From an uncultured beta proteobacterium (lineage in GTDB: Bacteria > Pseudomonadota > Gammaproteobacteria > Burkholderiales > Burkholderiaceae_C): DNA of 63,602 nucleotides. A model generated the notes under the pieces. The model did no database searches and was not told the origin of the DNA. It saw only the letters and a program-made list of their open reading frames with translations. The stretch lies in the NCBI GenBank assembly GCA_903930255.1, contig CAIYYA010000191.1, forward strand, positions 1-63,602, read 5' to 3'. Below, in pieces: positions 2,616 through 56,355 of the stretch. Numbering within the stretch: position 1 is the stretch's first letter; every line of letters begins with the position of its first letter. The translations under genes and the position numbers were made by a program.

Positions 2616-5600
2616 TTAGTCAAATATGGCTTTTTTCCACAATGAGGTTTTTTCTTCAAGCGTGTATCTTGATTTTACCCAGTTGTAAATTAAATCAGAT
2701 TGGTGCGCTCTAAAGTCATGATCAAAAAGCCTTCTTATTTCTGTCAGCCATGCATCCTTATCATCTTTGACTCGCAAAACTGGCGCTTCATCGGTTTGAT
2801 AGGGGTACACATCAGAGCAAACCACCGGCCAACCCATCGCGCCATATTCAAGCAATCGTAAATTACTCTTGCATCGATTAAATATATTATCTTCCAAAGG
2901 TGCGATTGCAATATCAAGATCAAGCTCAGCTATTTTTTTCGGATATTCTGAAATACTCACGAAATGATGAAATTCTTTCAGGTAAGGTCTGATTCCATCG
3001 GTGCACATACCCATAAATACCCAATCGACTTCAGCTGCCAATTCACTGACAACAGCGCTGATGAGCTCAAGATCCCCTTGATGCTGCCCGGCCCCCACCC
3101 AGCCAATGCGAAGCCTGCTGCGCTGCTTGGGTTTGTTGCGTAGACCTTGCCACTGATAGGCCAGCATGTTGGGAACAATATGAACGTCATCCACATATTT
3201 TCGATAGTGATCAGCCAAGGTTTGTGTCGTCACAATCAGCCTATCTGACTTGATGAGTGCTTGCATCATTCGCTGGTGCCCTTCCCGAGATTGAAACTCA
3301 CGGTTGGGGTGTTTTTCTGGAACTTCGCCAAACAAGTCATCGACCATTTGAACGATGCGCAAATTCGGTGCTGCTTTTTTGTAATATTCGATTTGGCGCA
3401 ATTGACCATCGTCAACAGAATGCTGCAGTATCAGGCAGTCTGGAGCGGCTCGAACCACATCTAGTGGGCTGAGTATTCTGTGAGCGCGAGACGGCAGAGG
3501 CAACACGACACAACTTTGCACGAGTCCTGCATCTTGCAATGCGTTGAGTGGTTCGACCACACGATATTGACCTGCGCCGCTGAAGAGTGCTACGGCCATG
3601 GTTCTGGGTCTGTCATGGCGCCTGGGTTGCCAATCAACCACAATATCTGCCTCAATATCAAACGGTATGGCAAATGAAAGGTGACGGTTGTAGTTTGGAT
3701 CTTTGGCGAGCTGTGGCGCCCAACGTTCGAGCAAGCTTTCACGTTCCTGAATTTCGCGCTGAGCTAGAGCCAGTTGTTGCCGAATATCGCGCCTCAGTGA
3801 CTCGAATGTTTTCCCACCATGGTGCATCACACCAGCGAGTGGTGTCCAAACATGACGTCGTCCCAATTGGGACAAACGCAGGCAAAAATCTAAAACTGTG
3901 AAATAAAGCCCGAAAGTTTGCGAGTCAAATCCATTGACACGAACCCAGTCTGATTTGCGTAGCACAAAGAAATGCCCCGCCACAGCACTGACGTCCTGCG
4001 CCAATTGCAAACGCGAGTACACCCCAATTTCATCCAGTCGTTGCTCCTCACCCACATAAGCAGCCATCACGCCGCAAATGCCCAAAAACATCGGGCCACC
4101 AACCAGCTTGGGATCTTTATCTCGTGAAGCCACCAGTCTTGGTGCTACACAAGCCACATCAGATTGTGCAAAATAGCTCAGCAGTAGCTTGAGCCAATCA
4201 GCGTGCACGGGCTCCGTATCGTCATCTGCAATCAAAACAAAATCACCTTGCGCAAATTCAATGCCCTTATTCAAAGCAGCGCCATGGTTGTATTGAGCCT
4301 GCTCAAATTCAATGATTTGAATCTGCAGTGCTGGAAAGTCATCGCATACAAATGAAACCTCAGCCGCCTGCACTGGCTGGCAAACAAGCACAATATCGAC
4401 CAAACTTGGTTCAGGATAGCGCTTCAGTGCAAGCAGAAAACTGCGCAAATAACCTGTCTGCAAGCCTGTGGCCATGACAAGGCTAACACGCGTTTGCTCT
4501 GGCGCAACATATTCAACAAGCCACGTGCCAAACCAGTCCAGTGGCCTGAGTGCTTTGATTTCTGCATGCTTGGATATCGCTTTGCGAGCCGCTTCAAACT
4601 CTTGATTTTCTAAAACGCCAGATGAAATGGCTGGCGCATGAAATAAAACTGAGTCAACATGACCAATCGATTTCTTCCCCTGAGTGGCAAGAAGTTCGAG
4701 AGCGTAGCCATAGATGCCACCATCAAAAAGTGGCAACCCTGACTGAACCCAAGCATCGACCGAAACCAGTACGGCGCTGCCCAAATAATTGGTACAGCGC
4801 AATAGCTCAATATTGGCATCTGACTTAAAGAGAGGAAAGGCATGTTTGCCTTGTGCTTGGAGCACGTCCTCATCTGAATAAATCAGCATGCAGTCCGGCC
4901 TGTCTGTTGCAGCCCAAGAAAACTCAATGAGGGCGTGTGGCGCCAGCACAGTACCCGCAAGAACCAGCAAAACCCAATCAACAGCCAGTTCGTTGAGCTG
5001 GCTGATGCCTAAGCCATTTTCGGAAATCTGAATCCAGCGGATAGCCCCCGCATCCACGAATACACCGGGGATCGGATCGTGCGAGACAATGATGACCTCT
5101 GCAGGCTGACCAAGGCATGTCGCTAAACTGTCAATCGTGTCTGCCAATGCATCCAGGCTTGATGCACGCTGGTCAATCAACACTTTGAGTTGAGGCAATT
5201 CACCGTTGACCAACATTTCCGCATAAATTTGCGCATCAATTTCACGCAAACTGCTGCGCTCTGTCCATTGACTGTATTGCTGGTTGAGTTTGAACCATTT
5301 GTTGCGATCTGCCCTTGCGGCTAGATCCTTGCCTTCAGTGTAGATTCCAGGCAACGTGTCAACGGTTGCTTGCGGCCAGGCCAAATCTAATGTAAGCGTG
5401 TTCGCTGCCGCTTGCGTTGTGGCAATAAACGCAGCCAATTGTTCCTGCCATTGAGCAACGGACTCTAGGTATTGATTCCTAAACTGAAGAACGGTCGTGT
5501 TAGCACAGGCAAACTCCTCTGCACCCATGCCCCAAGCGAGTCCCGCATCACCATAAAAACCGATATCAGAATGCTGATCGGTCAAACACTGCGGGTTAGT

Positions 5601-6242
5601 CACGCAAACAACTGGGCAGCCACACAATCGAGCCTCGATCGCTATGAGCGCCCAGTCATAGACATAGAGCACCTTGGCGCGTTGCAACAAACAAATGGTT
5701 TCTTGTTCATTTTTTAGTTTTTCGTCTGAAAGTTCAACCGCATCTGGATGGCATTTCAGGGGGTCGCCCTTGAATCTGCCCAAATAAAACAATGCCACAG
5801 TCCTAGCTGAATCTTGTTCTGGCACAGGGTAATTGTTGGCATCGACAACCGGCAAAAACAAAGGTGCCGAAGCACCCCAAAATCCCCTTTGCCGTTCATA
5901 AACCAACTCATTTTCAGCAACTAGATTTTTGATTTTTTGATGCTGAATTTGGTTCAGAATGTAGCGTACCGGGACGCCCAATTTAAGCGTATCTGAAGTC
6001 ATCCATTCGGGATAGACCACAATGGGTTTTCGGTTGGCCTTGTAATGAGCGACCTTCACTTGCACATTTAGAGGCGGGGTCCACAAGCCACCATGAATGG
6101 ACGGCGACTCAACATAAGCTTCGAAGCCAGACAGATTAAGCAGATGACAAAGCTGATGTAAAAACTGCGCGCCGGACAACGTTTGCGCATAATCAGGCGC
6201 AACGATGTAATAAGGCTGCGGTTCGTAATGAAATTGCGACAT
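2616..6242 (-). CDS. Giant multi-domain glycosyltransferase
   Basis: 1208 residues from ATG at 6242. Four segments are visible. Residues about 1-290 are a GT-B-like domain (YYIVAPDYAQTLSGAQFL, IVVYPEWM, VRYILNQ, YVYDWALIAIEARLCGC). Residues about 310-580 look like a degenerate GT2 domain with YSDED. Residues about 585-850 are a better GT2 domain with DDDTEP as the metal-binding acidic motif and GHFFVLRKSDW-VNGFDS. From about residue 880 to the end there is a GT4/GT1-like domain (RLRIGWVGAGQHQGDL, AIAPLEDNIFNRCKSNLRLLEYGAMG). Such fusions build short glycans on flagellin or polysaccharide. The gene lies 92 bp downstream of a flagellin gene on the same strand with no clear terminator between, so it may be read from the flagellin side. 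Flagellin as the substrate is inference. Confidence 0.87.
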   Translation of the reverse strand: MSQFHYEPQPYYIVAPDYAQTLSGAQFLHQLCHLLNLSGFEAYVESPSIHGGLWTPPLNVQVKVAHYKANRKPIVVYPEWMTSDTLKLGVPVRYILNQIQHQKIKNLVAENELVYERQRGFWGASAPLFLPVVDANNYPVPEQDSARTVALFYLGRFKGDPLKCHPDAVELSDEKLKNEQETICLLQRAKVLYVYDWALIAIEARLCGCPVVCVTNPQCLTDQHSDIGFYGDAGLAWGMGAEEFACANTTVLQFRNQYLESVAQWQEQLAAFIATTQAAANTLTLDLAWPQATVDTLPGIYTEGKDLAARADRNKWFKLNQQYSQWTERSSLREIDAQIYAEMLVNGELPQLKVLIDQRASSLDALADTIDSLATCLGQPAEVIIVSHDPIPGVFVDAGAIRWIQISENGLGISQLNELAVDWVLLVLAGTVLAPHALIEFSWAATDRPDCMLIYSDEDVLQAQGKHAFPLFKSDANIELLRCTNYLGSAVLVSVDAWVQSGLPLFDGGIYGYALELLATQGKKSIGHVDSVLFHAPAISSGVLENQEFEAARKAISKHAEIKALRPLDWFGTWLVEYVAPEQTRVSLVMATGLQTGYLRSFLLALKRYPEPSLVDIVLVCQPVQAAEVSFVCDDFPALQIQIIEFEQAQYNHGAALNKGIEFAQGDFVLIADDDTEPVHADWLKLLLSYFAQSDVACVAPRLVASRDKDPKLVGGPMFLGICGVMAAYVGEEQRLDEIGVYSRLQLAQDVSAVAGHFFVLRKSDWVRVNGFDSQTFGLYFTVLDFCLRLSQLGRRHVWTPLAGVMHHGGKTFESLRRDIRQQLALAQREIQERESLLERWAPQLAKDPNYNRHLSFAIPFDIEADIVVDWQPRRHDRPRTMAVALFSGAGQYRVVEPLNALQDAGLVQSCVVLPLPSRAHRILSPLDVVRAAPDCLILQHSVDDGQLRQIEYYKKAAPNLRIVQMVDDLFGEVPEKHPNREFQSREGHQRMMQALIKSDRLIVTTQTLADHYRKYVDDVHIVPNMLAYQWQGLRNKPKQRSRLRIGWVGAGQHQGDLELISAVVSELAAEVDWVFMGMCTDGIRPYLKEFHHFVSISEYPKKIAELDLDIAIAPLEDNIFNRCKSNLRLLEYGAMGWPVVCSDVYPYQTDEAPVLRVKDDKDAWLTEIRRLFDHDFRAHQSDLIYNWVKSRYTLEEKTSLWKKAIFD

Positions 6243-34638: not shown

Positions 34639-35847
34639 ATGACACATTCAAATCCATGGAAACTGGCCGCACGCGCCGCCAAAATGAACCCCTCCGTGAT
34701 CCGAGAAATCCTCAAGGTCACCGAAAAACCCGGCATCATCAGTTTTGCGGGTGGGCTGCCCTCCAGCAAAACTTTTCCGGTGGCCGAATTTGAGGCCGCC
34801 TGTGCCAAAGTTCTGCGCGACGACCCCGCTGGGGCTTTGCAATATGCTGCCAGCGAGGGTTTTGCGCCACTGCGCGAGATGGTCGCTGACATGCTGCCCT
34901 GGAACGTCGACCCAGCTCAGGTGCTCATCACCACCGGCAGCCAGCCGGGGCTCGACTTGGTGGCCAAGGTGCTAATTGACTCTGGCAGCAAAATTCTGGT
35001 CGAGTCGCCCACTTATTTGGGCGCTGTGATGGCTTTTATTCCAATGGAACCGCAAGTGGTCAGCATTGCCAGCGACGAGCACGGGGTCGAAATCGCCGAC
35101 TTGTCTGAAAAAGCCAGCGATGCACGGTTTTTATACGTGCTACCCAACTTTCAAAATCCCACCGGGCGCACCATGTCGGAGCAGCGTCGCACGGCTCTCA
35201 GCGCTTTGGCCGGCGAGCGTGGCTTGCCCTTGATTGAAGACAACCCCTATGGCGACTTGTGGTTTGACACCCCGCCCCCGGCACCCCTGACTGCACGCAA
35301 TCCGGATGGCTGCATATATCTGGGTTCGTTCTCCAAAGTGTTGGCGCCGGGTTTGCGGTTGGGTTTTGTGGTGGCGCCCAAAGCGGTTTACCCTAAGTTG
35401 CTGCAAGCCAAGCAAGCCGCAGATCTGCACAGTCCGGGCTTTAACCAGCGCATGATCACCGAAGTGATGAAAGGCGGTTTTTTAGACCGCCATGTGCCCA
35501 CCATCCGCGCACTTTACAAAGCACAGCGCGATGCCATGTTGCAAGCCCTTACGCATGCCTTTGCAGAGAATACCAACCAAGCCGACGCCTCGTTGACTTG
35601 GAACTCACCCGCAGGCGGCATGTTTTTGTGGGCGCGCCTGCCCCAAGGCATGAATGCCGTTGATTTATTGCCGTTTGCTGTTGCGCAAGGTGTGGCTTTT
35701 GTGCCCGGAGCGCCGTTTTATGCCGAGCATGGCGACTTGCGCACCCTGCGTCTGAGTTTTGTCACTCCCAGCGTTGATGAAATTCACCGGGGCGTAGCAG
35801 CGCTGGCGCTGGCAATAAAGAACTATGCATTCAGTCTGAAAAGCTAA
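34639..35847 (+). CDS. PLP-dependent aminotransferase, class I/II (LysN/2-aminoadipate type)
   Basis: 402 residues from ATG 34639 (MTHSNPWKLAARAAKMN). The upstream in-frame start at 34570 adds 23 residues unlike the family. Motifs present are ISFAGGLPSSKTFP, TTGSQPGLDL, the NPTGRTMS loop, EDNPYGDL and the PLP Lys in YLGSFSKVLAPGLRLGF. Members transfer amino groups from 2-aminoadipate, aromatic or branched-chain amino acids to 2-oxo acids. The exact substrate is uncertain. The PhzF-like remnant starts 4 bp after the stop. Confidence 0.9.
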   Translation: MTHSNPWKLAARAAKMNPSVIREILKVTEKPGIISFAGGLPSSKTFPVAEFEAACAKVLRDDPAGALQYAASEGFAPLREMVADMLPWNVDPAQVLITTGSQPGLDLVAKVLIDSGSKILVESPTYLGAVMAFIPMEPQVVSIASDEHGVEIADLSEKASDARFLYVLPNFQNPTGRTMSEQRRTALSALAGERGLPLIEDNPYGDLWFDTPPPAPLTARNPDGCIYLGSFSKVLAPGLRLGFVVAPKAVYPKLLQAKQAADLHSPGFNQRMITEVMKGGFLDRHVPTIRALYKAQRDAMLQALTHAFAENTNQADASLTWNSPAGGMFLWARLPQGMNAVDLLPFAVAQGVAFVPGAPFYAEHGDLRTLRLSFVTPSVDEIHRGVAALALAIKNYAFSLKS

Positions 35848-41493: not shown

Positions 41494-43626
41494 ATGCGCC
41501 TATTTGACCGACTCCTGAATACTATTTTTTTTAGTGCTACTTGCGTTTTATCCATGAGCGCTGGAGCCCAAATTAGCTTGCAATCAGTGTTGAGCAATGA
41601 GCTTGTGCGCGCCGAATTGCTGGCCTTTGCACCCGACGGTGCCGATGCCGGCAAAACGGTTTGGCTGGGCTTGCAACTCAAACATCAGCCCGAATGGCAC
41701 ACATACTGGAAAAATTCAGGCGATTCGGGACAACCGACCACTCTGAGCTGGAGCTTGCCAGCAGGTGTCACAGCGGGCGACATTGCCTGGCCCTTGCCCA
41801 AAAAAATACCCATCGGCAACCTGGCCAACTATGGCTATGACGGCACGGTGCTATTGCCAGTGCCTTTGCACATCACCTCAGCCTTCAAGCCGGCGGCGCT
41901 CAAATCAACGCTGGATATCGAACTGCAGGCGAGTTGGCTGGTTTGCAAACAGGAATGTGTGCCGCAAGAAGGCAAGTTTGCGTTGAATCTGCCGGTTAAG
42001 GGGTCAACTGCTTTGAATGCCGCCGATTTTGATGCGGCATTTCAGCTCACGCCCAAACCCCTCAAGGGTGAAAGCAGCATCAGCATCCAAGGCAACACAC
42101 TGCACCTTTCGGTGAGCGGTTTGCCCGCCACGCTGCAAAGCAAAACACTCGAATTTTTTCCGGAAAATCCCGAGGTGATCGAAACCGCAGCGCGCTGGAG
42201 CCAGAGCTGGCAAAACGCCACCTGGACAGCGCGGGTGCCGATCTCCCCCCAGCGCCTGAACAGCCCTGGCGAAATGACACTGGTGTTGGCTGCGCAAGCT
42301 GATGGCGAGCGCATGGGCTTTATCAGCAACGCCAAGGTGTCCGGCGCCTGGCCAAGCCAAGCCGCTGCGGGTTCAGCACCAACCATGCCCAGTCCTTTAA
42401 CGAAACCCACTGCGCCGGCCGTTTCTCTGAGTTTCTGGGCGGCACTGGTCGGAGCTTTGCTGGGCGGCATGCTGTTAAACCTAATGCCCTGCGTGTTTCC
42501 GGTGCTGGCCATCAAGGTGATCAGTTTCACCCGCCACGCAGAGAGTCCGCGTGGCCAGCGCATCAGCGGCCTGGCCTACAGCGCCGGTGTGGTGCTGTCG
42601 TTCATGGCACTTGGCGCGCTAATCCTGACGCTGCGCGGTGCCGGTGAGCAACTTGGCTGGGGCTTTCAGCTGCAGTCGCCCTTGGTTGTCGCTGCTTTGG
42701 CAACCCTGTTTACCGTGATGGGACTGAATTTAGCCGGTTTGTTTGAGTTTGGCCAGTTTGTGCCCAGCAGCATCGCCTCACTGGAGGCAAAAAATCCATC
42801 GCTCAACGCCTTTTTGTCGGGGGTGCTGGCGGTGCTGATCGCCTCGCCCTGCACCGCACCGTTCATGGGCGCCTCGTTGGGTCTGGCTTTGAGTTTGCCG
42901 ACGCCGCAGGCATTGGCAATTTTTGCAGCCATCGGCGTTGGCATGGCTCTGCCCTACTTGGGTGCAAGCTGGTCGCCTGCGCTGGCCAGCCTCTTGCCAC
43001 GCCCAGGTCAGTGGATGAACACCTTTCGCCAGGCTATGGCTTTCCCCATGTTTGCCACCGTCATCTGGTTGGTGTGGGTGTTGGGTCAGCAAAGCGGCAT
43101 CAACGGGGCCAGTGCTTTGCTGGCGCTATTGCTGGGCTTGGCTCTGCTGCTCTGGGCACTGCAACTGCAGGGTCGCAGCGGACGCATAATCGCTACATTT
43201 TCTGTAGTAGCATTGGCTTTACTGGCAAGCGCTATAGGTCAAAATATACTGCAAGAAAATGAGGCGCAGAGCAGCACCAACAGCAGCCCGATCTGGCAAG
43301 CCTGGACACCCGGCAAGACCGAACAACTACTGGCCAGTGGTGCACCCGTCTTCATTGACTTTACCGCCGCTTGGTGCGTCACCTGCCAATACAACAAAAA
43401 AACGACACTCGCCGATACCGATGTGCTGGCGGACTTTGCCAGCAAAAAAGTGGTTTTGCTGCGCGCCGACTGGACGCGCCGCGACCCCGCCATTAGCCAA
43501 GCTCTGGCAGATCTGGGACGCAGCGGCGTTCCGGTGTATGTGCTGGCAGCGCCCGGACGTGCCCCGGTGCTCTTTTCTGAAATCCTTTCGGCCAGCGCTT
43601 TGCGCCAAGCTTTGGCCGAACTGTGA
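41494..43626 (+). CDS. dsbD: DsbD/ScsB-type transmembrane thiol:disulfide reductase
   Basis: 710 residues from ATG 41494; earlier in-frame starts lie inside the DUF167 gene. A signal peptide (LSMSAGAQISL) leads to a periplasmic alpha domain with CKQEC near residue 155. About eight membrane helices run from 310 to 590, with the redox Cys in LMPCVFPVLAIKV and IASPCTAPFMGAS. The C-terminal thioredoxin domain carries WCVTC near residue 626. The protein moves electrons from cytoplasmic thioredoxin to periplasmic partners and can supply reduced apocytochrome for heme attachment, fitting the cytochrome c genes that follow. A copy of the dispersed repeat (43195-43247) forms part of the coding sequence between the last helices and the thioredoxin domain. 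Confidence 0.93.
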   Translation: MRLFDRLLNTIFFSATCVLSMSAGAQISLQSVLSNELVRAELLAFAPDGADAGKTVWLGLQLKHQPEWHTYWKNSGDSGQPTTLSWSLPAGVTAGDIAWPLPKKIPIGNLANYGYDGTVLLPVPLHITSAFKPAALKSTLDIELQASWLVCKQECVPQEGKFALNLPVKGSTALNAADFDAAFQLTPKPLKGESSISIQGNTLHLSVSGLPATLQSKTLEFFPENPEVIETAARWSQSWQNATWTARVPISPQRLNSPGEMTLVLAAQADGERMGFISNAKVSGAWPSQAAAGSAPTMPSPLTKPTAPAVSLSFWAALVGALLGGMLLNLMPCVFPVLAIKVISFTRHAESPRGQRISGLAYSAGVVLSFMALGALILTLRGAGEQLGWGFQLQSPLVVAALATLFTVMGLNLAGLFEFGQFVPSSIASLEAKNPSLNAFLSGVLAVLIASPCTAPFMGASLGLALSLPTPQALAIFAAIGVGMALPYLGASWSPALASLLPRPGQWMNTFRQAMAFPMFATVIWLVWVLGQQSGINGASALLALLLGLALLLWALQLQGRSGRIIATFSVVALALLASAIGQNILQENEAQSSTNSSPIWQAWTPGKTEQLLASGAPVFIDFTAAWCVTCQYNKKTTLADTDVLADFASKKVVLLRADWTRRDPAISQALADLGRSGVPVYVLAAPGRAPVLFSEILSASALRQALAEL
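43195..43247 (+). repeat. Dispersed ~50-bp repeat, copy C, inside dsbD
   Basis: The sequence includes GTAGTAGCATTGGCTTTACT and GGCAAGCGCTATAGGTC, which align with copy A over about 40 bases. It is read in frame and encodes the hydrophobic stretch VVALALLASAIGQN. Confidence 0.55.
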
Positions 43627-43728: not shown

Positions 43729-43768
43729 AATTATTTTGTCGATCTCAGGCGACATTCCCTAAGCCCGC

Positions 43769-43805
43769 ACTAAGGATTCCTTAAGACTGCCCTGTTAGTC
43801 TTAAG
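43769..43805 (+). promoter_or_regulatory. Overlapping palindromes before the cytochrome operon
   Basis: TAAGGATTCCTTA (43771-43783) overlaps TTAAGACT-N8-AGTCTTAA (43781-43788/43797-43804), which has perfect 8-bp arms. ACTAAG-N5-CTTAAG at 43769-43785 resembles the direct-repeat box bound by PmrA/QseB-type response regulators. The dhc start codon is 30 bp downstream. Alternatively the second palindrome is a promoter-proximal RNA hairpin. Confidence 0.5.
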
Positions 43806-43834: not shown

Positions 43835-44293
43835 ATGAATTGTGTCAAACACCTCGCTGTCAGCTTGATCGCGCTCACCAGCGCGTCTTCGTTTGCCGAT
43901 CAAATTGCTGGGGCTATACCTCTCATCCCCAAAGCTGAACAAGAATGCTCGGCCTGTCACATGGCCTATCGCCCCAATTTTCTGCCCAAGTCTTCCTGGC
44001 AAAAGGTCATGACCACGCTCGACAAGCACTACGGTGTTGACGCCTCCTTGACGGCGGCTGATCAAAAAGAAATCGCCGACTGGCTTAACGCCACAGCCCT
44101 GGATGCCGGTGAAGCGCCCCCCGAAAACCGTGGCACCAAAGCTTTTTGGTTCACCCGCAAGCATGGCACCAGACACATTGCAACCGATGTTTGGGCGCGC
44201 ACAGCGGTCAAGAGCCCATCCAACTGCCAAGCTTGCCACGTGGATGCAGCCAAGGGCGATTTCAATGAACGCAATATCAGAATTCCACGCTAG
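43835..44293 (+). CDS. Diheme cytochrome c (DHC), first copy
   Basis: 152 residues with a signal peptide (KHLAVSLIALTSASSFADQ). Two heme sites are present: CSACH at 38-42 and CQACH at 131-135. The surrounding DHC family pattern is present (ECSACHMAYRPNFLPKSSW, VKSPSNCQACH, ending IRIPR). DHC is the periplasmic electron donor to SHP in Rhodobacter sphaeroides. The stop TAG sits at the left edge of a 166-bp inverted-repeat element, so the link to the downstream shp gene has been altered. Confidence 0.92.
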   Translation: MNCVKHLAVSLIALTSASSFADQIAGAIPLIPKAEQECSACHMAYRPNFLPKSSWQKVMTTLDKHYGVDASLTAADQKEIADWLNATALDAGEAPPENRGTKAFWFTRKHGTRHIATDVWARTAVKSPSNCQACHVDAAKGDFNERNIRIPR

Positions 44294-44456
44294 GAGGCTG
44301 TCGAACCTTCGGCATCGAAGCGAAAATCGACCCCGGCGAGCACAGTTTTTGCTAGATTTGCAGGCCATTAGCCTCGCTATTGGTCAAAAAGACGGTGAAA
44401 AATGAGCCGCGGCGGTCGGTTTGCAGCTGATCCACCGAAAGTTCGACAGCCTCCTA
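44291..44456. mobile_element. MITE-like element or deleted IS with 16-bp perfect inverted repeats
   Basis: TAGGAGGCTGTCGAAC (44291-44306) and GTTCGACAGCCTCCTA (44441-44456) are perfect reverse complements bounding 166 bp. If TA is the duplicated target, the inverted repeats proper are 14 bp. GGAGGCTGTCGAA-type ends resemble insertion-sequence termini. The inside has no substantial open frame. It lies between dhc and shp, and the dhc stop codon overlaps its left end. The family is not identified. Confidence 0.7.
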
Positions 44457-44500
44457 TATAAGTTCGATAATTTCAACTCTCTCCAACTCAAGGAAACACC

Positions 44501-44893
44501 ATGATCACGACCAAAAAAACCTTTCAATTATTGGCCGGCCTGGCTCTGGCTTTGCCCCTCGCTGCTGCCGCTGCCAATCCGATTCTGGATGGCTACCAGG
44601 CTGAAATCAAAGGCACGTTCAGTGCAGCGGCTGGTGAAAAACTCTATAAAACAGTGGGTCCGACCCAACTCTCGTGCGCCTCCTGCCACACCGCCTCACC
44701 CAAGGGTGTCGGCAAGCACGAAAAGACCAACAAGCCCATCGACCCACTGGCACCCAGCGCCAACCCCAAACGCTTCACAGATGCTGCCCAAGTTGAAAAA
44801 TGGTTCAAACGCAACTGCAACGACGCCTTGGGACGTGCCTGCACCACCCAGGAAAAGGGCGATTTCATGACTTACGTTTTGTCCGTTAAATAA
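44501..44893 (+). CDS. shp: SHP-type monoheme cytochrome c (DUF1924)
   Basis: 130 residues. A signal peptide ends near AAAAANPILDGY. One heme site CASCH lies at 59-63. Asn105 in KRNCNDALGRAC corresponds to the Asn that is the labile sixth heme ligand in the R. sphaeroides SHP structure, next to a disulfide that would pair Cys106 and Cys114. SHP binds O2, NO and small anions when the Asn swings away. Its physiological role is not settled. AAGGAA precedes ATG 44501, and dhc copy 2 follows after 11 bp. Confidence 0.92.
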   Translation: MITTKKTFQLLAGLALALPLAAAAANPILDGYQAEIKGTFSAAAGEKLYKTVGPTQLSCASCHTASPKGVGKHEKTNKPIDPLAPSANPKRFTDAAQVEKWFKRNCNDALGRACTTQEKGDFMTYVLSVK

Positions 44894-44904
44894 GGTTGGC
44901 GCAG

Positions 44905-45384
44905 ATGAAATTCATTCAACACACCTTACTCGCCGTTTTGGCGGTGGCATCGTTAGGTGCCCAAGCCAAATACAACGGTGAAGACCGGGGCAAACCGGTC
45001 ATGCCCAATGAAGTCAACGCCAAGATGCAAAAAGAATGCTCGGGCTGCCACATGGCTTTCCCCCCCGGTCTGATGTCTGCCAACTCCTGGAAAAAGCTCA
45101 TGTCAGGTTTGGATAAGCACTTTGGCACCGATGCTTCGATATCGGCACAAGACACCCAAGAAATCACCAATTACTTGGTCAAGTACGAATCCAACCGCTG
45201 GACAGCCAGCACTGCACCGATTCGCATCACCGAGGCCAAATGGTTCAAGGACAAGCACAACGGCGAAATCAGCCCTGCCGTTTGGAAGCGCGAGTCGATC
45301 AAAAGCCCGTCTAACTGCGCTGCTTGTCACCAAGGCGCTGAAAAAGGCAATTTTGACGAGCACAGCATCAAGATTCCAAAATAA
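44905..45384 (+). CDS. Diheme cytochrome c (DHC), second copy
   Basis: 159 residues from ATG 44905 (TTG 44896 is rejected). A signal peptide (LLAVLAVASLGAQAKY) precedes two heme sites, CSGCH at 45-49 and CAACH at 138-142. It is similar to the first copy around both hemes (SWKKLMSGLDKHFGTDAS versus SWQKVMTTLDKHYGVDAS) and at the end (IKIPK). It is the likely direct partner of SHP. The b561-DHC fusion follows after 62 bp. Confidence 0.93.
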   Translation: MKFIQHTLLAVLAVASLGAQAKYNGEDRGKPVMPNEVNAKMQKECSGCHMAFPPGLMSANSWKKLMSGLDKHFGTDASISAQDTQEITNYLVKYESNRWTASTAPIRITEAKWFKDKHNGEISPAVWKRESIKSPSNCAACHQGAEKGNFDEHSIKIPK

Positions 45385-45446
45385 AAGTGCACCTCAGCAT
45401 TGCTGAATTTGCTGCAATTTCCACTCACCGCTGAAAGCCAGAGCCC

Positions 45447-46649
45447 ATGCAACGCACCCTGATCTGGGATCTTCCCACTCGCCTGTTCCACTGGACTCTG
45501 GCCTCCTGCTTTGCCACTGCCTGGCTCACCAGTGATGGCGATCGGTGGATCGCGGTGCATGTGTTTGCCGGCTACCTGATGCTGGGTTTGGTGGCTTTTC
45601 GCGTGCTATGGGGCTTTTGGGGCTCCCATTTTTCACGCTTTGCCACGTTCTGGTTTGGCCCGCGTGAAGCCATAGCCTATTTGAAAGAAGTGGTTGCTGG
45701 CCACGCCGCGCGCCACGTGGGGCATAACCCAACCGGTAGCGTGGCCATTTATATCTTGCTCGCGCTGACCGTGGTGGTTGGTTTTGCAGGCATTGTCACC
45801 ATGGGGGGTGACGAGCAACAAGGCCTGGCTGCGGGTTGGTTCAGTTTTTCGCAAATTGAAGTTTTGAAAAAACTCCATGAAGCTGGTGCCATTTTGATGC
45901 TGCTGGTGGTGGCTGGCCACATCACCGGCGTGGTGGTTGAGAGCGTGCAGCACAAAGAAAATTTGGCACGTTCGATGGTAACGGGCTACAAACAAGCCGA
46001 GCCGGGTACACCCATAGCCATGGCTCGCCGCGGTGTTGCCGGCGTGCTACTGCTGGGTATGTTAAGTTTTGCCGGCTGGTGGTTCTACTACGCCATTGAC
46101 CGACAAATTGACGGTCAAGGTTGGCACGTCAAACTTGAAAGCGGCACAGGAGAAGAGGCTCATGTGAAATTTGTTGGCAAACAACTCGCCGACAACAAAC
46201 CATGGCGCGACGAATGCGGTAGCTGTCACTCGGTGTTTTACCCAGCGCTGCTGCCAGCGCGCTCGTGGGAAAAAATGATGGCCGAGCAAGACAAGCATTT
46301 TGGCTCCGACTTGGGTCTTGATGCGCCCACCACTGCGGCTGTTTTGAAATTCATGGTGGACAACTCGGCCGACAAACATTTGATTGAAGCTGCATTCAAA
46401 ATTGACAAATCCGTTGCAAAAGAGGCAACCCCTCAACGCATCACCGAAACCCCCTATTGGGTCAATAAACACCGCGAAATTGCCGCCTCTGACTGGGCTA
46501 ATCCACTGGTCAAGAGCAAAAACAATTGTGCGGCCTGCCACACTGACGCAGATGACGGCACCTACGAAGATGGTGCCATGCAGATCCCCAAGGCGCCAAA
46601 AATGACCGTCTCAGCGCCTGCCTCAGCGCCTGCGCCTGCCAAACCTTAA
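45447..46649 (+). CDS. Cytochrome b561 fused to a diheme cytochrome c domain
   Basis: 400 residues. Residues 1-215 are a cytochrome b561/Ni-Fe-hydrogenase-type b domain with four or five membrane helices. Likely heme b ligands are His15 (LFHW), His38, His144 (KKLHEAG) and His158 (AGHITG). Residues about 235-380 form a third DHC domain with hemes at CGSCH (257-261) and CAACH (361-365) and the same W-x9-KHFGSD pattern. A Pro/Ala-rich tail ends the protein. It would pass electrons from the quinone pool through b hemes to its own c hemes and then to soluble DHC and SHP. In other bacteria the b561 and DHC are usually separate proteins. Confidence 0.92.
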
Positions 46650-46707: not shown

Positions 46708-47823
46708 ATGAACTCACCTATCACTCCCTCCTCTTACGCCCCGCTACAAAATGACACTTTTCTGCGCGCTTGTCTGCGCCAGGCGACCGACTACACGCCC
46801 ATATGGATGATGCGTCAGGCCGGACGTTTTTTACCTGAGTACCGCGCCACCCGTGCCAAGGCCGGCAGTTTCATGGGCTTGGCCACTAACACCGACTTTG
46901 CCACCGAAGTCACCTTGCAGCCGCTCGATCGCTTCCCAATTGACGCGGCTATTTTGTTCAGTGATATTCTGACGGTGCCGGATGCAATGGGCCTTGGTTT
47001 GAGCTTTGCGTTGGGCGAAGGCCCCAAATTTGCATCCCCCGTGCGCGACGAAGCTGCTGTCACCCGGCTGCAAGTGCCCGACATGGACAAGCTGCGCTAT
47101 GTGTTTGATGCCGTCACCTCGATTCGCAAAGCACTGAATGGTCGTGTTCCGCTGATTGGTTTTTCGGGCAGCCCCTGGACGCTGGCTTGCTACATGGTCG
47201 AAGGTGCCGGTTCTGACGACTACCGCCTGGTCAAGACCATGCTCTACAGCCGCCCAGATCTGATGCACAAAATGCTGCAAATCAACGCAGATGCCGTGGC
47301 GTTGTACTTGAACACACAAATTGAAGCGGGCGCACAAGCGGTGATGATTTTTGACAGCTGGGGCGGCGTGCTCGCCGACGGTGCATTTCAAGAGTTCAGC
47401 CTGGCTTACACCCGCCGCGTACTCGCTCAATTGCACAAAAACTGGGACGGCGCGCGCATTCCAAGCATCGTCTTCACCAAAGGCGGAGGTTTGTGGCTCG
47501 ACGAAATGGAGCAACTTGACTGCAACGCGCTAGGACTAGACTGGACCGTTAACCTGACCAAGGCGCGTGCCACTGCCGGTGGTAGCAAAGCCCTGCAGGG
47601 CAACCTTGATCCGAACGTGTTGTTTGCCCAACCCGCGCAAATCGAGGCAGAAGTCATCAAGGTGTTGAATGCCTTTGGCTCACCACACAGTGGCACCGGC
47701 GAGGGCCCGACACACATCTTTAACCTGGGTCATGGCATCAGCCAGCACACGCAACCCGAGCACGTTGCCGCCTTGGTGCAGGCTGTGCACCACCATTCAC
47801 GGCAAATGCGCGGCGCGTGCTAA
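46708..47823 (+). CDS. hemE: Uroporphyrinogen decarboxylase
   Basis: 371 residues. The signature [20 protein letters not shown] is at residues 31-50, and the second ([20 protein letters not shown]) is near 153. The C-terminus has [20 protein letters not shown]. The cytoplasmic enzyme removes four acetate carboxyls from uroporphyrinogen III to give coproporphyrinogen III in heme synthesis. It lies directly after the heme-protein operon, though a link is not required because hemE-priA is common in Burkholderiales. Confidence 0.97.
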
Positions 47824-52359: not shown

Positions 52360-56280
<3,921 letters not shown>

Positions 56281-56355
56281 TGGCAAAACTGATGCGGTGT
56301 TTGGCTACGCAAAAGTGATGGAGCCGATTGTCGTTGAACTCGAAGGGCTAAAACA

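What the first reader, a model, noticed from the sequence alone, without database searches (positions are those of the whole stretch)
43835..46649. Expanded DHC-SHP-b561 electron-transfer module with three diheme domains
The sequence shows four adjacent cytochrome genes with seven c-type heme sites (2+1+2+2) plus a membrane b domain. The known R. sphaeroides arrangement is one DHC, one SHP and one b561. Here DHC occurs twice as a soluble protein and a third time fused to b561. SHP has a ligand-switching Asn and can bind O2 and NO, but its role is unresolved. A chain quinone to b hemes to fused DHC to soluble DHC to SHP is implied. dsbD, which supports heme attachment, lies just upstream.
Basis: partly seen in the sequence, partly recalled or inferred. 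Interest (0 to 1): 0.75.

Follow-up and report, generated by a model that had tools for sequence, protein, structure and literature searches.

The report
SHP cytochrome operon with shared operator
This is a known kind of bacterial electron-carrier gene set, here with one extra carrier gene; the DNA switch in front of it also sits in front of metal-export and other cytochrome genes in related bacteria, which gives a testable clue to what this oxygen-binding protein family is for.

Summary
The four genes are real: DHC1, SHP (DUF1924), DHC2 and a b561-DHC fusion, with 2+1+2+2 c-type haem sites plus a b domain. Nearest named relatives are Rhodoferax. The expansion is smaller than claimed: R. sphaeroides already has the fusion plus a soluble DHC, and operons with two DHCs are in print (Meyer 2010). 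The addition is DHC1, an old paralog, in the same order in 12 of 28 named loci and under purifying selection. The new result is the promoter: HTAAG-N6-TTAAG/T plus a -10 element precedes the operon in 28 of 28 loci with enough upstream sequence (controls dsbD 0 of 17, hemE 0 of 19). It resembles the operator of the ferrous-iron regulator BqsR. The likely cognate QseBC-class pair lies at a second locus beside a fourth DHC and another b561. In relatives the box also precedes a small-protein/CDF cation-efflux unit (12 of 29) and a FAD/2Fe-2S reductase (25 of 30). Best reading: a quinol-to-SHP haem relay in a QseB-class regulon, probably answering metal cations. The signal is inferred, not shown.

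The parts
43759..43785 (+). Operator: CTAAG-N6-CTAAG-N6-TTAAG, three half-sites at 11-bp steps; core box 43770-43785
   Evidence: core box in 28 of 28 loci with at least 120 nt upstream; half-site columns 95% conserved against 43% in the 25 nt upstream
43796..43801 (+). -10-like element TAGTCT, 10 nt after the core box (consensus TANNCT)
   Evidence: T 96%, A 100%, last T 100% of 28 loci
43835..44293 (+). DHC1, soluble diheme cytochrome c (CSACH, CQACH)
   Evidence: PF09626 E 6e-30
44291..44456 (.). MITE-like insertion with 22-bp terminal inverted repeats; its left edge overlaps the DHC1 stop codon
   Evidence: DHC1-SHP gap 207 nt here, 31-55 nt in 12 relatives
44501..44893 (+). SHP (DUF1924), monoheme CASCH, ligand Asn105, cysteines 106 and 114
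   Evidence: PF09086 E 2e-37
44905..45384 (+). DHC2, soluble diheme cytochrome c (CSGCH, CAACH)
   Evidence: PF09626 E 5e-37
45447..46649 (+). Cytochrome b561 - DHC fusion (b561 about 45465-45986, DHC about 46203-46565)
   Evidence: PF01292 and PF09626; conserved His and Cys columns in 25 rows
41494..43626 (+). dsbD, conserved upstream neighbour, not part of the operon proper
   Evidence: box found before dsbD in 0 of 17 loci
46708..47823 (+). hemE, conserved downstream neighbour
   Evidence: box found before hemE in 0 of 19 loci

Best explanation
An operon for a periplasmic electron relay: quinol reduces the b haems of the b561 domain, electrons pass to the fused DHC, then to the soluble DHCs (DHC2 and the extra DHC1), then to SHP, whose Asn ligand leaves on reduction so that ferrous haem can bind O2 or NO. 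The operon is switched on by a QseB/PmrA/BqsR-class response regulator bound over the -35 region at CTAAG-N6-TTAAG. The cognate pair is most likely the QseBC-class pair at contig C87, next to a fourth DHC and a stand-alone b561. The same regulator probably also drives a small membrane protein with CDF cation efflux, a FAD/2Fe-2S reductase and multihaem cytochromes, so the signal is probably a divalent metal cation (Fe2+ the best guess). Shown here: genes, motifs, order, operator footprint, co-occurrence, shared box. Inferred: electron flow, regulator binding, signal, terminal chemistry.
For: Families, motifs, ligands. Operator: window plus 27 named loci, 28 of 28; loci of unnamed genus genomes, overlapping the named set in species, 27 of 28 with usable upstream sequence, Markov null 0.5%. 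Box plus -10 in 89 genus genomes: 56 matches against 5 for the reversed pattern. Regulator: ortholog 80% identical to the one beside the R. antarcticus SHP operon, next best 48%. SHP and regulator ortholog: 56 both, 11 SHP only, 4 regulator only, 18 neither, of 89, p 4e-8 without correction for kinship. Class-wide: box in 7 of 8 SHP operons near a QseB-class pair (4 of 8 with a stricter operon rule) against 1 of 16 near other regulators. Shared targets; a conserved small ORF starts about 67-75 nt after the box between box and CDF in 11 of 11 loci read. Sensor ExxE directly after the first hydrophobic segment in 10 of 12 QseC-type rows, 11 of 12 anywhere in the stretch. Papers, passages only: BqsR consensus TTAAG(N)6TTAAG, ferrous-iron responsive (PMC4682146); BqsS binds Fe2+ (PMC12666569); Salmonella PreA/QseB activates a cytochrome b561 and PreB has a putative iron site (PMC2653508); A. 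vinosum DUF1924, DHCs, b561, FieF and RND efflux rise together on pyrite (PMC11267869).
Against: The A. vinosum SHP cluster is published as the SK1 type, not the QseB class, and pyrite is not a pure metal signal; three of its genes were reported lower on elemental sulfur than on sulfide. No CDF gene was found in 40 class-wide SHP stretches (0 of 40, one query). The bare box is not enriched in this genome (13 against 21 control). 17 of 29 CDF loci lack the box, and the box there lies 296-391 nt before CDF in 11 of 12 and also near a divergent pyrF where that was found (8 of 12). 11 of 67 SHP genomes show no close regulator ortholog. Regulator and sensor score below NCBIfam's QseB and QseC cut-offs (247.6 of 345; 340.9 of 475). 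ExxE is a short motif; 1 of 2 other-type sensors read also has one. The window genome is a 377-contig assembly with 6.5% contamination. The predicted structure of the fusion was too poor to use (mean pLDDT 47).
Confidence: 0.6

Rival explanations
1. NO detoxification chain: SHP is a periplasmic NO dioxygenase fed by quinol through b561 and the DHCs, and metals are at most a side signal.
For: R. sphaeroides SHP is reported to have NO dioxygenase activity (Li 2008, as cited in PMC2909971; that paper was not read). The ligand set is intact in 29 of 29.
Against: The box targets read are cation efflux and cytochrome or reductase genes. NO-response operators and NO genes were not searched for, so this rival was not tested directly.
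Confidence: 0.3
2. Electron-export or metal-reduction branch: SHP only passes electrons on towards multihaem cytochromes and metals, and ligand binding is incidental.
For: The same box precedes multihaem cytochrome operons. A. vinosum SHP genes rise on pyrite.
Against: SHP keeps the switching ligand set in 29 of 29, which a plain carrier would not need.
Confidence: 0.2
3. The box is bound by a different OmpR-family regulator and the QseBC-class link is coincidental.
For: The own genome holds 12 matches to the regulator at E<=1e-20; similar TTAAG repeats serve PmrA, QseB and BqsR (PmrA and QseB recalled).
Against: Box presence tracks the QseB-class pair class-wide and for CDF within the genus (11 of 12 with box against 7 of 17 without). 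A TTAAG-N6-TTAAT box precedes the C87 operon.
Confidence: 0.15
4. DHC1 is a decaying duplicate in an insertion-split operon and no longer matters in this strain.
For: A MITE-like element separates DHC1 from SHP; the window DHC1 has the longest end branch of the DHC1 rows displayed (0.39).
Against: The frame is intact with both CXXCH motifs; pN/pS of its 12 pairs is 0.29-0.43; DHC1 is an old clade (100/99), present in 12 of 28 named loci.
Confidence: 0.08

Closest known systems
[quoted passage not shown] 2010, PMC2909971
   Same: Same three protein types including the b561/DHC fusion; same SHP ligand and disulfide
   Different: Gene order differs; one extra soluble DHC (DHC1) comes first; R. 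sphaeroides is described as having no regulatory genes in the operon
SK2/QseC-type SHP operons (Burkholderia in Meyer 2010; Rhodoferax antarcticus L062 here)
   Same: Same genes; the response-regulator ortholog is 80% identical; same box before the L062 operon
   Different: In the window the two-component genes are not in the operon but at contig C87; L062 lacks DHC1
Pseudomonas aeruginosa BqsRS/CarRS ferrous-iron regulon
   Same: Operator TTAAG-N6-TTAAG, a pentamer over the -35 region; sensor with ExxE
   Different: Regulator scores best to QseB and PmrA models and was not compared with BqsR; Fe2+ response unknown here
Salmonella PreA/PreB (QseB/QseC) regulon
   Same: QseB-class regulator that activates a cytochrome b561 gene
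   Different: No SHP or DHC in the passages read

Membership tests
SHP (DUF1924, PF09086) | DUF1924 domain above gathering score with CXXCH | tested here: met
   127.9 bits against 22.5
SHP (DUF1924, PF09086) | Asn sixth ligand and adjacent disulfide cysteines | tested here: met
   Aligned to 1DW0; 29 of 29 rows
SHP (DUF1924, PF09086) | Ligand release on reduction, O2 or NO binding | not testable with these tools
   Needs purified protein
DHC (PF09626) | DHC domain with two CXXCH | tested here: met
   DHC1 105, DHC2 127.8, fused 133.1 bits against 22.2
CytB/mDHC chimera | b561 domain fused to a DHC domain | tested here: met
   PF01292 and PF09626 in one frame; one clade with 11 of 12 class-wide fused domains
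SK2/QseBC-type SHP operon | QseBC-class genes within the operon | tested here: not met
   hemE follows the fusion directly; the pair lies at C87
SK2/QseBC-type SHP operon | Operator shared with such operons | tested here: met
QseB and QseC (NCBIfam equivalogs), C87 pair | Score above the curated cut-off | tested here: not met
   247.6 of 345 and 340.9 of 475 bits: QseBC-class only
BqsR-type ferrous-iron regulon | TTAAG-N6-TTAAG operator | tested here: met
   One base off in the window (CTAAG first half-site)
BqsR-type ferrous-iron regulon | Induction by Fe2+ | not testable with these tools
   No expression data for this organism

The most novel reading that the evidence does not exclude
SHP modules of QseB-class bacteria are the electron-transfer arm of a divalent-cation (Fe2+) stress regulon, controlled together with a small membrane protein plus CDF efflux, a FAD/2Fe-2S reductase and multihaem cytochromes; SHP would use quinol electrons to bind or consume O2 or NO in the periplasm when ferrous iron builds up, which would answer what SHP is for.
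Probability: 0.3. Interest if true: 0.75.

Novelty: new variant of a known kind. Interest (0 to 1): 0.55.

Why it matters
SHP is described as the only c-type haem protein known to bind O2 (PMC2909971), and its role is open. An operator found in 28 of 28 usable loci, a candidate regulator and a list of co-targets turn that question into direct tests: which metal or gas induces the box, and which co-regulated genes share the phenotype. In the held paper library I found no paper that links an SHP operon to a TTAAG-N6-TTAAG operator or to a shared regulon with CDF efflux (searches; most subscription journals are not held).

Tried and rejected
Considered and dropped or limited. (a) 'Three diheme domains are new': rejected, the fusion and two-DHC operons are in Meyer 2010. 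(b) Net charge as a docking clue between DHC1 and DHC2: no difference. (c) DHC1 as a recent tandem copy of DHC2: rejected, DHC1, DHC2 and fused DHC are separate clades (100/99, 100/99, 100/88; the bootstrap had not fully settled). (d) Bare box count in the own genome: below its control (13 against 21); only box plus -10, or box plus target gene, carries signal. (e) CDF near SHP class-wide: 0 of 40 stretches. (f) Box straight before CDF: on rechecking, the distance is 296-391 nt in 11 of 12 loci; a conserved small ORF lies in between in 11 of 11 read (the twelfth, L216, has the box 106 nt away and was not read). (g) Structure of the fusion: mean pLDDT 47, not used; no fold search was run. (h) Rfam: no match at gathering score in the window. 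(i) The first box scan of the genus loci ignored strand and was redone (replaced). (j) Class-wide, a first count by eye (7 of 8 against 1 of 14, put into) left out two loci with intermediate regulator scores; the scripted counts at five operon-gap settings are the ones reported (an earlier single setting is). (k) The 8 T_hemolysin-type box matches were grouped by sequence likeness; only 2 of 8 were read and 1 scanned, so they may be chance or a real target.
Full report
WHAT IS THERE. Between dsbD and hemE the window holds four + strand genes: DHC1 (43835-44293), SHP/DUF1924 (44501-44893), DHC2 (44905-45384) and a b561-DHC fusion (45447-46649), all far above their Pfam gathering scores, with seven CXXCH motifs. 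SHP aligns with R. sphaeroides SHP (1DW0) through the Asn ligand and both disulfide cysteines; these are present in 29 of 29 SHPs aligned. In the fusion, both CXXCH sites, His284 and His342 (the likely sixth ligands, inferred) and b561 His93, 144, 158 and 169 are conserved in 25 of 25 rows. The best named relatives are Rhodoferax. The window genome has one SHP and a fourth DHC on contig C87.

THE FOUR-GENE FORM IS SHARED AND PARTLY KNOWN. Of 28 named loci brought in by the SHP protein, 12 show DHC1-SHP-DHC2-b561/DHC; among these 12, dsbD was found upstream in 11 and hemE downstream in 9, with one contig ending before hemE. The other 16 lack DHC1 or are cut off. Among 89 genus genomes 67 have SHP over the cut-off, and at least 14 show the four-domain order from the listed coordinates (the listing was truncated). 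Meyer et al. 2010 (PMC2909971; parts 1 to 4 of 5 read, passages) already describe 3-6 gene SHP operons with one or two DHCs, the CytB/mDHC chimera in R. sphaeroides and Rhodoferax ferrireducens, and the quinol-to-SHP model.

DHC1. In a tree of 118 DHC domains, DHC1 (13 rows), DHC2 (25) and fused DHC (26) are each one clade (100/99, 100/99, 100/88), and 11 of 12 fused class-wide domains join the genus fused clade, the twelfth being a long, uncertain row. DHC1 is thus not a recent copy of DHC2. Median dN/dS is 0.17 for DHC1 (76 of 78 pairs usable), 0.15 for DHC2 (77 of 78) and 0.11 for SHP (77 of 78); synonymous sites are near saturation, so these are rough. Net charge does not separate DHC1 (+3) from DHC2 (+3); SHP is +5, and the last 170 residues of the fusion are -4.

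INSERTION. A 166-bp element with 22-bp inverted repeats lies at 44291-44456. The own genome gives 11 matches: 4 near full-length places (C191, C175 twice, C294), 2 reverse-strand readings of the same places, and partial ones. The DHC1-SHP gap is 207 nt here and 31-55 nt in 12 relatives. As RNA it folds to -84 kcal/mol (z -7.7). A promoter-like pair spans its right edge (44443-44471), but such pairs were not clearly above shuffles (4 found, 1.8 with sd 1.5 expected).

OPERATOR. Upstream regions showed HTAAG-N6-TTAAG before the first gene. With checked starts, 28 of 28 loci with at least 120 nt upstream (window plus 27 named; L048 too short) have the box with at most one mismatch; in 22 of 28 its first base lies 56-61 nt before the start codon, in the window 65. 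Half-site columns are 95% conserved, the spacer 62%, the 25 nt upstream 43%; TANNCT follows at a fixed distance. Before dsbD and hemE in the same loci the box occurs in 0 of 17 and 0 of 19. In 30 SHP loci of unnamed genus genomes, two had almost no upstream sequence and 27 of the other 28 have the box within 800 nt, against 0.5% in Markov shuffles; this set overlaps the named one. Box plus -10 across 89 genomes gives 56 matches in 36 genomes against 5 for the reversed pattern. By my sorting 31 of 56 lie before SHP operons, 10 before the reductase, 8 are of a T_hemolysin type (2 read), 2 before a b561-DHC without SHP, 2 before a hydrophobic protein with a multihaem cytochrome, 1 before a ZIP-like gene (name recalled), 2 unclear.

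REGULATOR. In R. [quoted passage not shown] The window genome's ortholog, 80% identical (next best 48%), lies on C87 in an operon DHC - b561 - regulator - sensor with a TTAAG-N6-TTAAT box upstream. The same DHC-plus-regulator pairing away from SHP is seen by coordinates in at least 9 other genus genomes, which argues against contamination. NCBIfam ranks the C87 pair nearest QseB and QseC, below their cut-offs. SHP and the ortholog co-occur across 89 genomes (56 both, 11 SHP only, 4 regulator only, 18 neither; p 4e-8, kinship not corrected). Class-wide, SHP is over the cut-off in 48 of 276 genomes; of 50 such places outside the own genome I fetched 40: 8 have a QseB-class regulator within 5 kb, 16 another match to it, 16 none. 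The box is found in 7 of 8, 1 of 16 and 5-6 of 16 when operon gaps of 800-1600 nt are allowed, and in 4 of 8, 1 of 16 and 2-3 of 16 with gaps of 300-500 nt (Fisher 2e-4 and 0.028 for the first two groups; null about 1%).

REGULON. In the own genome the box lies before a CDF gene (C77), a FAD/2Fe-2S reductase (C269) and a hydrophobic protein followed by a multihaem cytochrome (C280). Among the best 30 loci for each protein (of 68 and 38 genus genomes with a match), the box lies within 400 nt of CDF in 12 of 29 with enough sequence, own genome included, and of the reductase in 25 of 30; null 0.1% and 0.4%. CDF loci with the box come from genomes with the regulator in 11 of 12 cases, without it in 7 of 17 (p 0.008). 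The box is 296-391 nt from CDF in 11 of these 12, and a divergent pyrF, where found (8 of 12), starts 24-149 nt from it. Between box and CDF, 11 of 11 loci read carry a small ORF (54 to about 80 aa, shared hydrophobic stretch and IPY...PGE) starting about 66-75 nt after the nearest box, close to the spacing seen for SHP operons. I read this as a box-driven small-protein/CDF unit; control of pyrF is not excluded. In L134 and L136 the reductase operon is divergent from another CDF gene. The sensor has ExxE right after its first hydrophobic stretch in 10 of 12 QseC-type rows.

LITERATURE LINKS (passages only). BqsR, a ferrous-iron responsive activator, uses TTAAG(N)6TTAAG, and in one dissected promoter the last pentamer overlaps the -35 (PMC4682146); its sensor binds Fe2+, the second Glu of ExxE being essential (PMC12666569). 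Salmonella PreA/PreB activates a cytochrome b561, and PreB has a putative iron site (PMC2653508). In Allochromatium vinosum on pyrite against sulfide, Alvin_0022 (DUF1924) has log2FC 7.10, with two DHC genes, b561, FieF, RND efflux and a regulator also raised; the paper does not use the name SHP and notes that Alvin_0020, 0022 and 0023 were lower on elemental sulfur than on sulfide (PMC11267869).

VERDICT. A real, conserved SHP electron-transfer operon with one additional soluble diheme cytochrome. The relay is the published model; the operator and shared regulon are the new part. The metal signal is an inference from box type, sensor motif and co-targets, and is not shown.

Noticed in passing
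44291-44456: MITE-like element with 22-bp inverted repeats, 4 near-full copies in the genome; very strong hairpin as RNA; possible hybrid promoter at its right edge.
   Followed up: partly
L100 3637-7029 (contig C87): Second locus DHC - b561 - QseB-class - QseC-class without SHP; the DHC-regulator pairing recurs in at least 9 other genus genomes.
   Followed up: yes
L191, L196, L197, L201, L202, L206, L207, L212, L213, L215, L219: Unannotated small hydrophobic ORF between the box and a CDF gene, conserved in 11 of 11 loci read; looks like a new small membrane protein.
   Followed up: partly
L102 2733-5324 (contig C280): Box-bearing operon of a 320-aa hydrophobic protein without a Pfam match and a large multihaem cytochrome; a similar pair in L144.
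   Followed up: partly
L134, L136: FAD/2Fe-2S reductase plus multihaem cytochrome operon with the box, divergent from a CDF gene.
   Followed up: partly
L082, L148: Box plus -10 before genes of the Pfam T_hemolysin kind (L082 scanned, L148 similar by eye); eight matches of this sequence type in the genus, meaning unclear.
   Followed up: no
35425-35511: ARAGORN tRNA-Phe with unusual anticodon aaa, antisense inside an aminotransferase gene: probably spurious.
   Followed up: no
52360-56286: Large hybrid sensor kinase with dCache, PAS, receiver and Hpt domains next to an HDOD protein.
   Followed up: no
2616-6242: 1208-aa open frame on the - strand without a Pfam match at E 1e-10.
   Followed up: no
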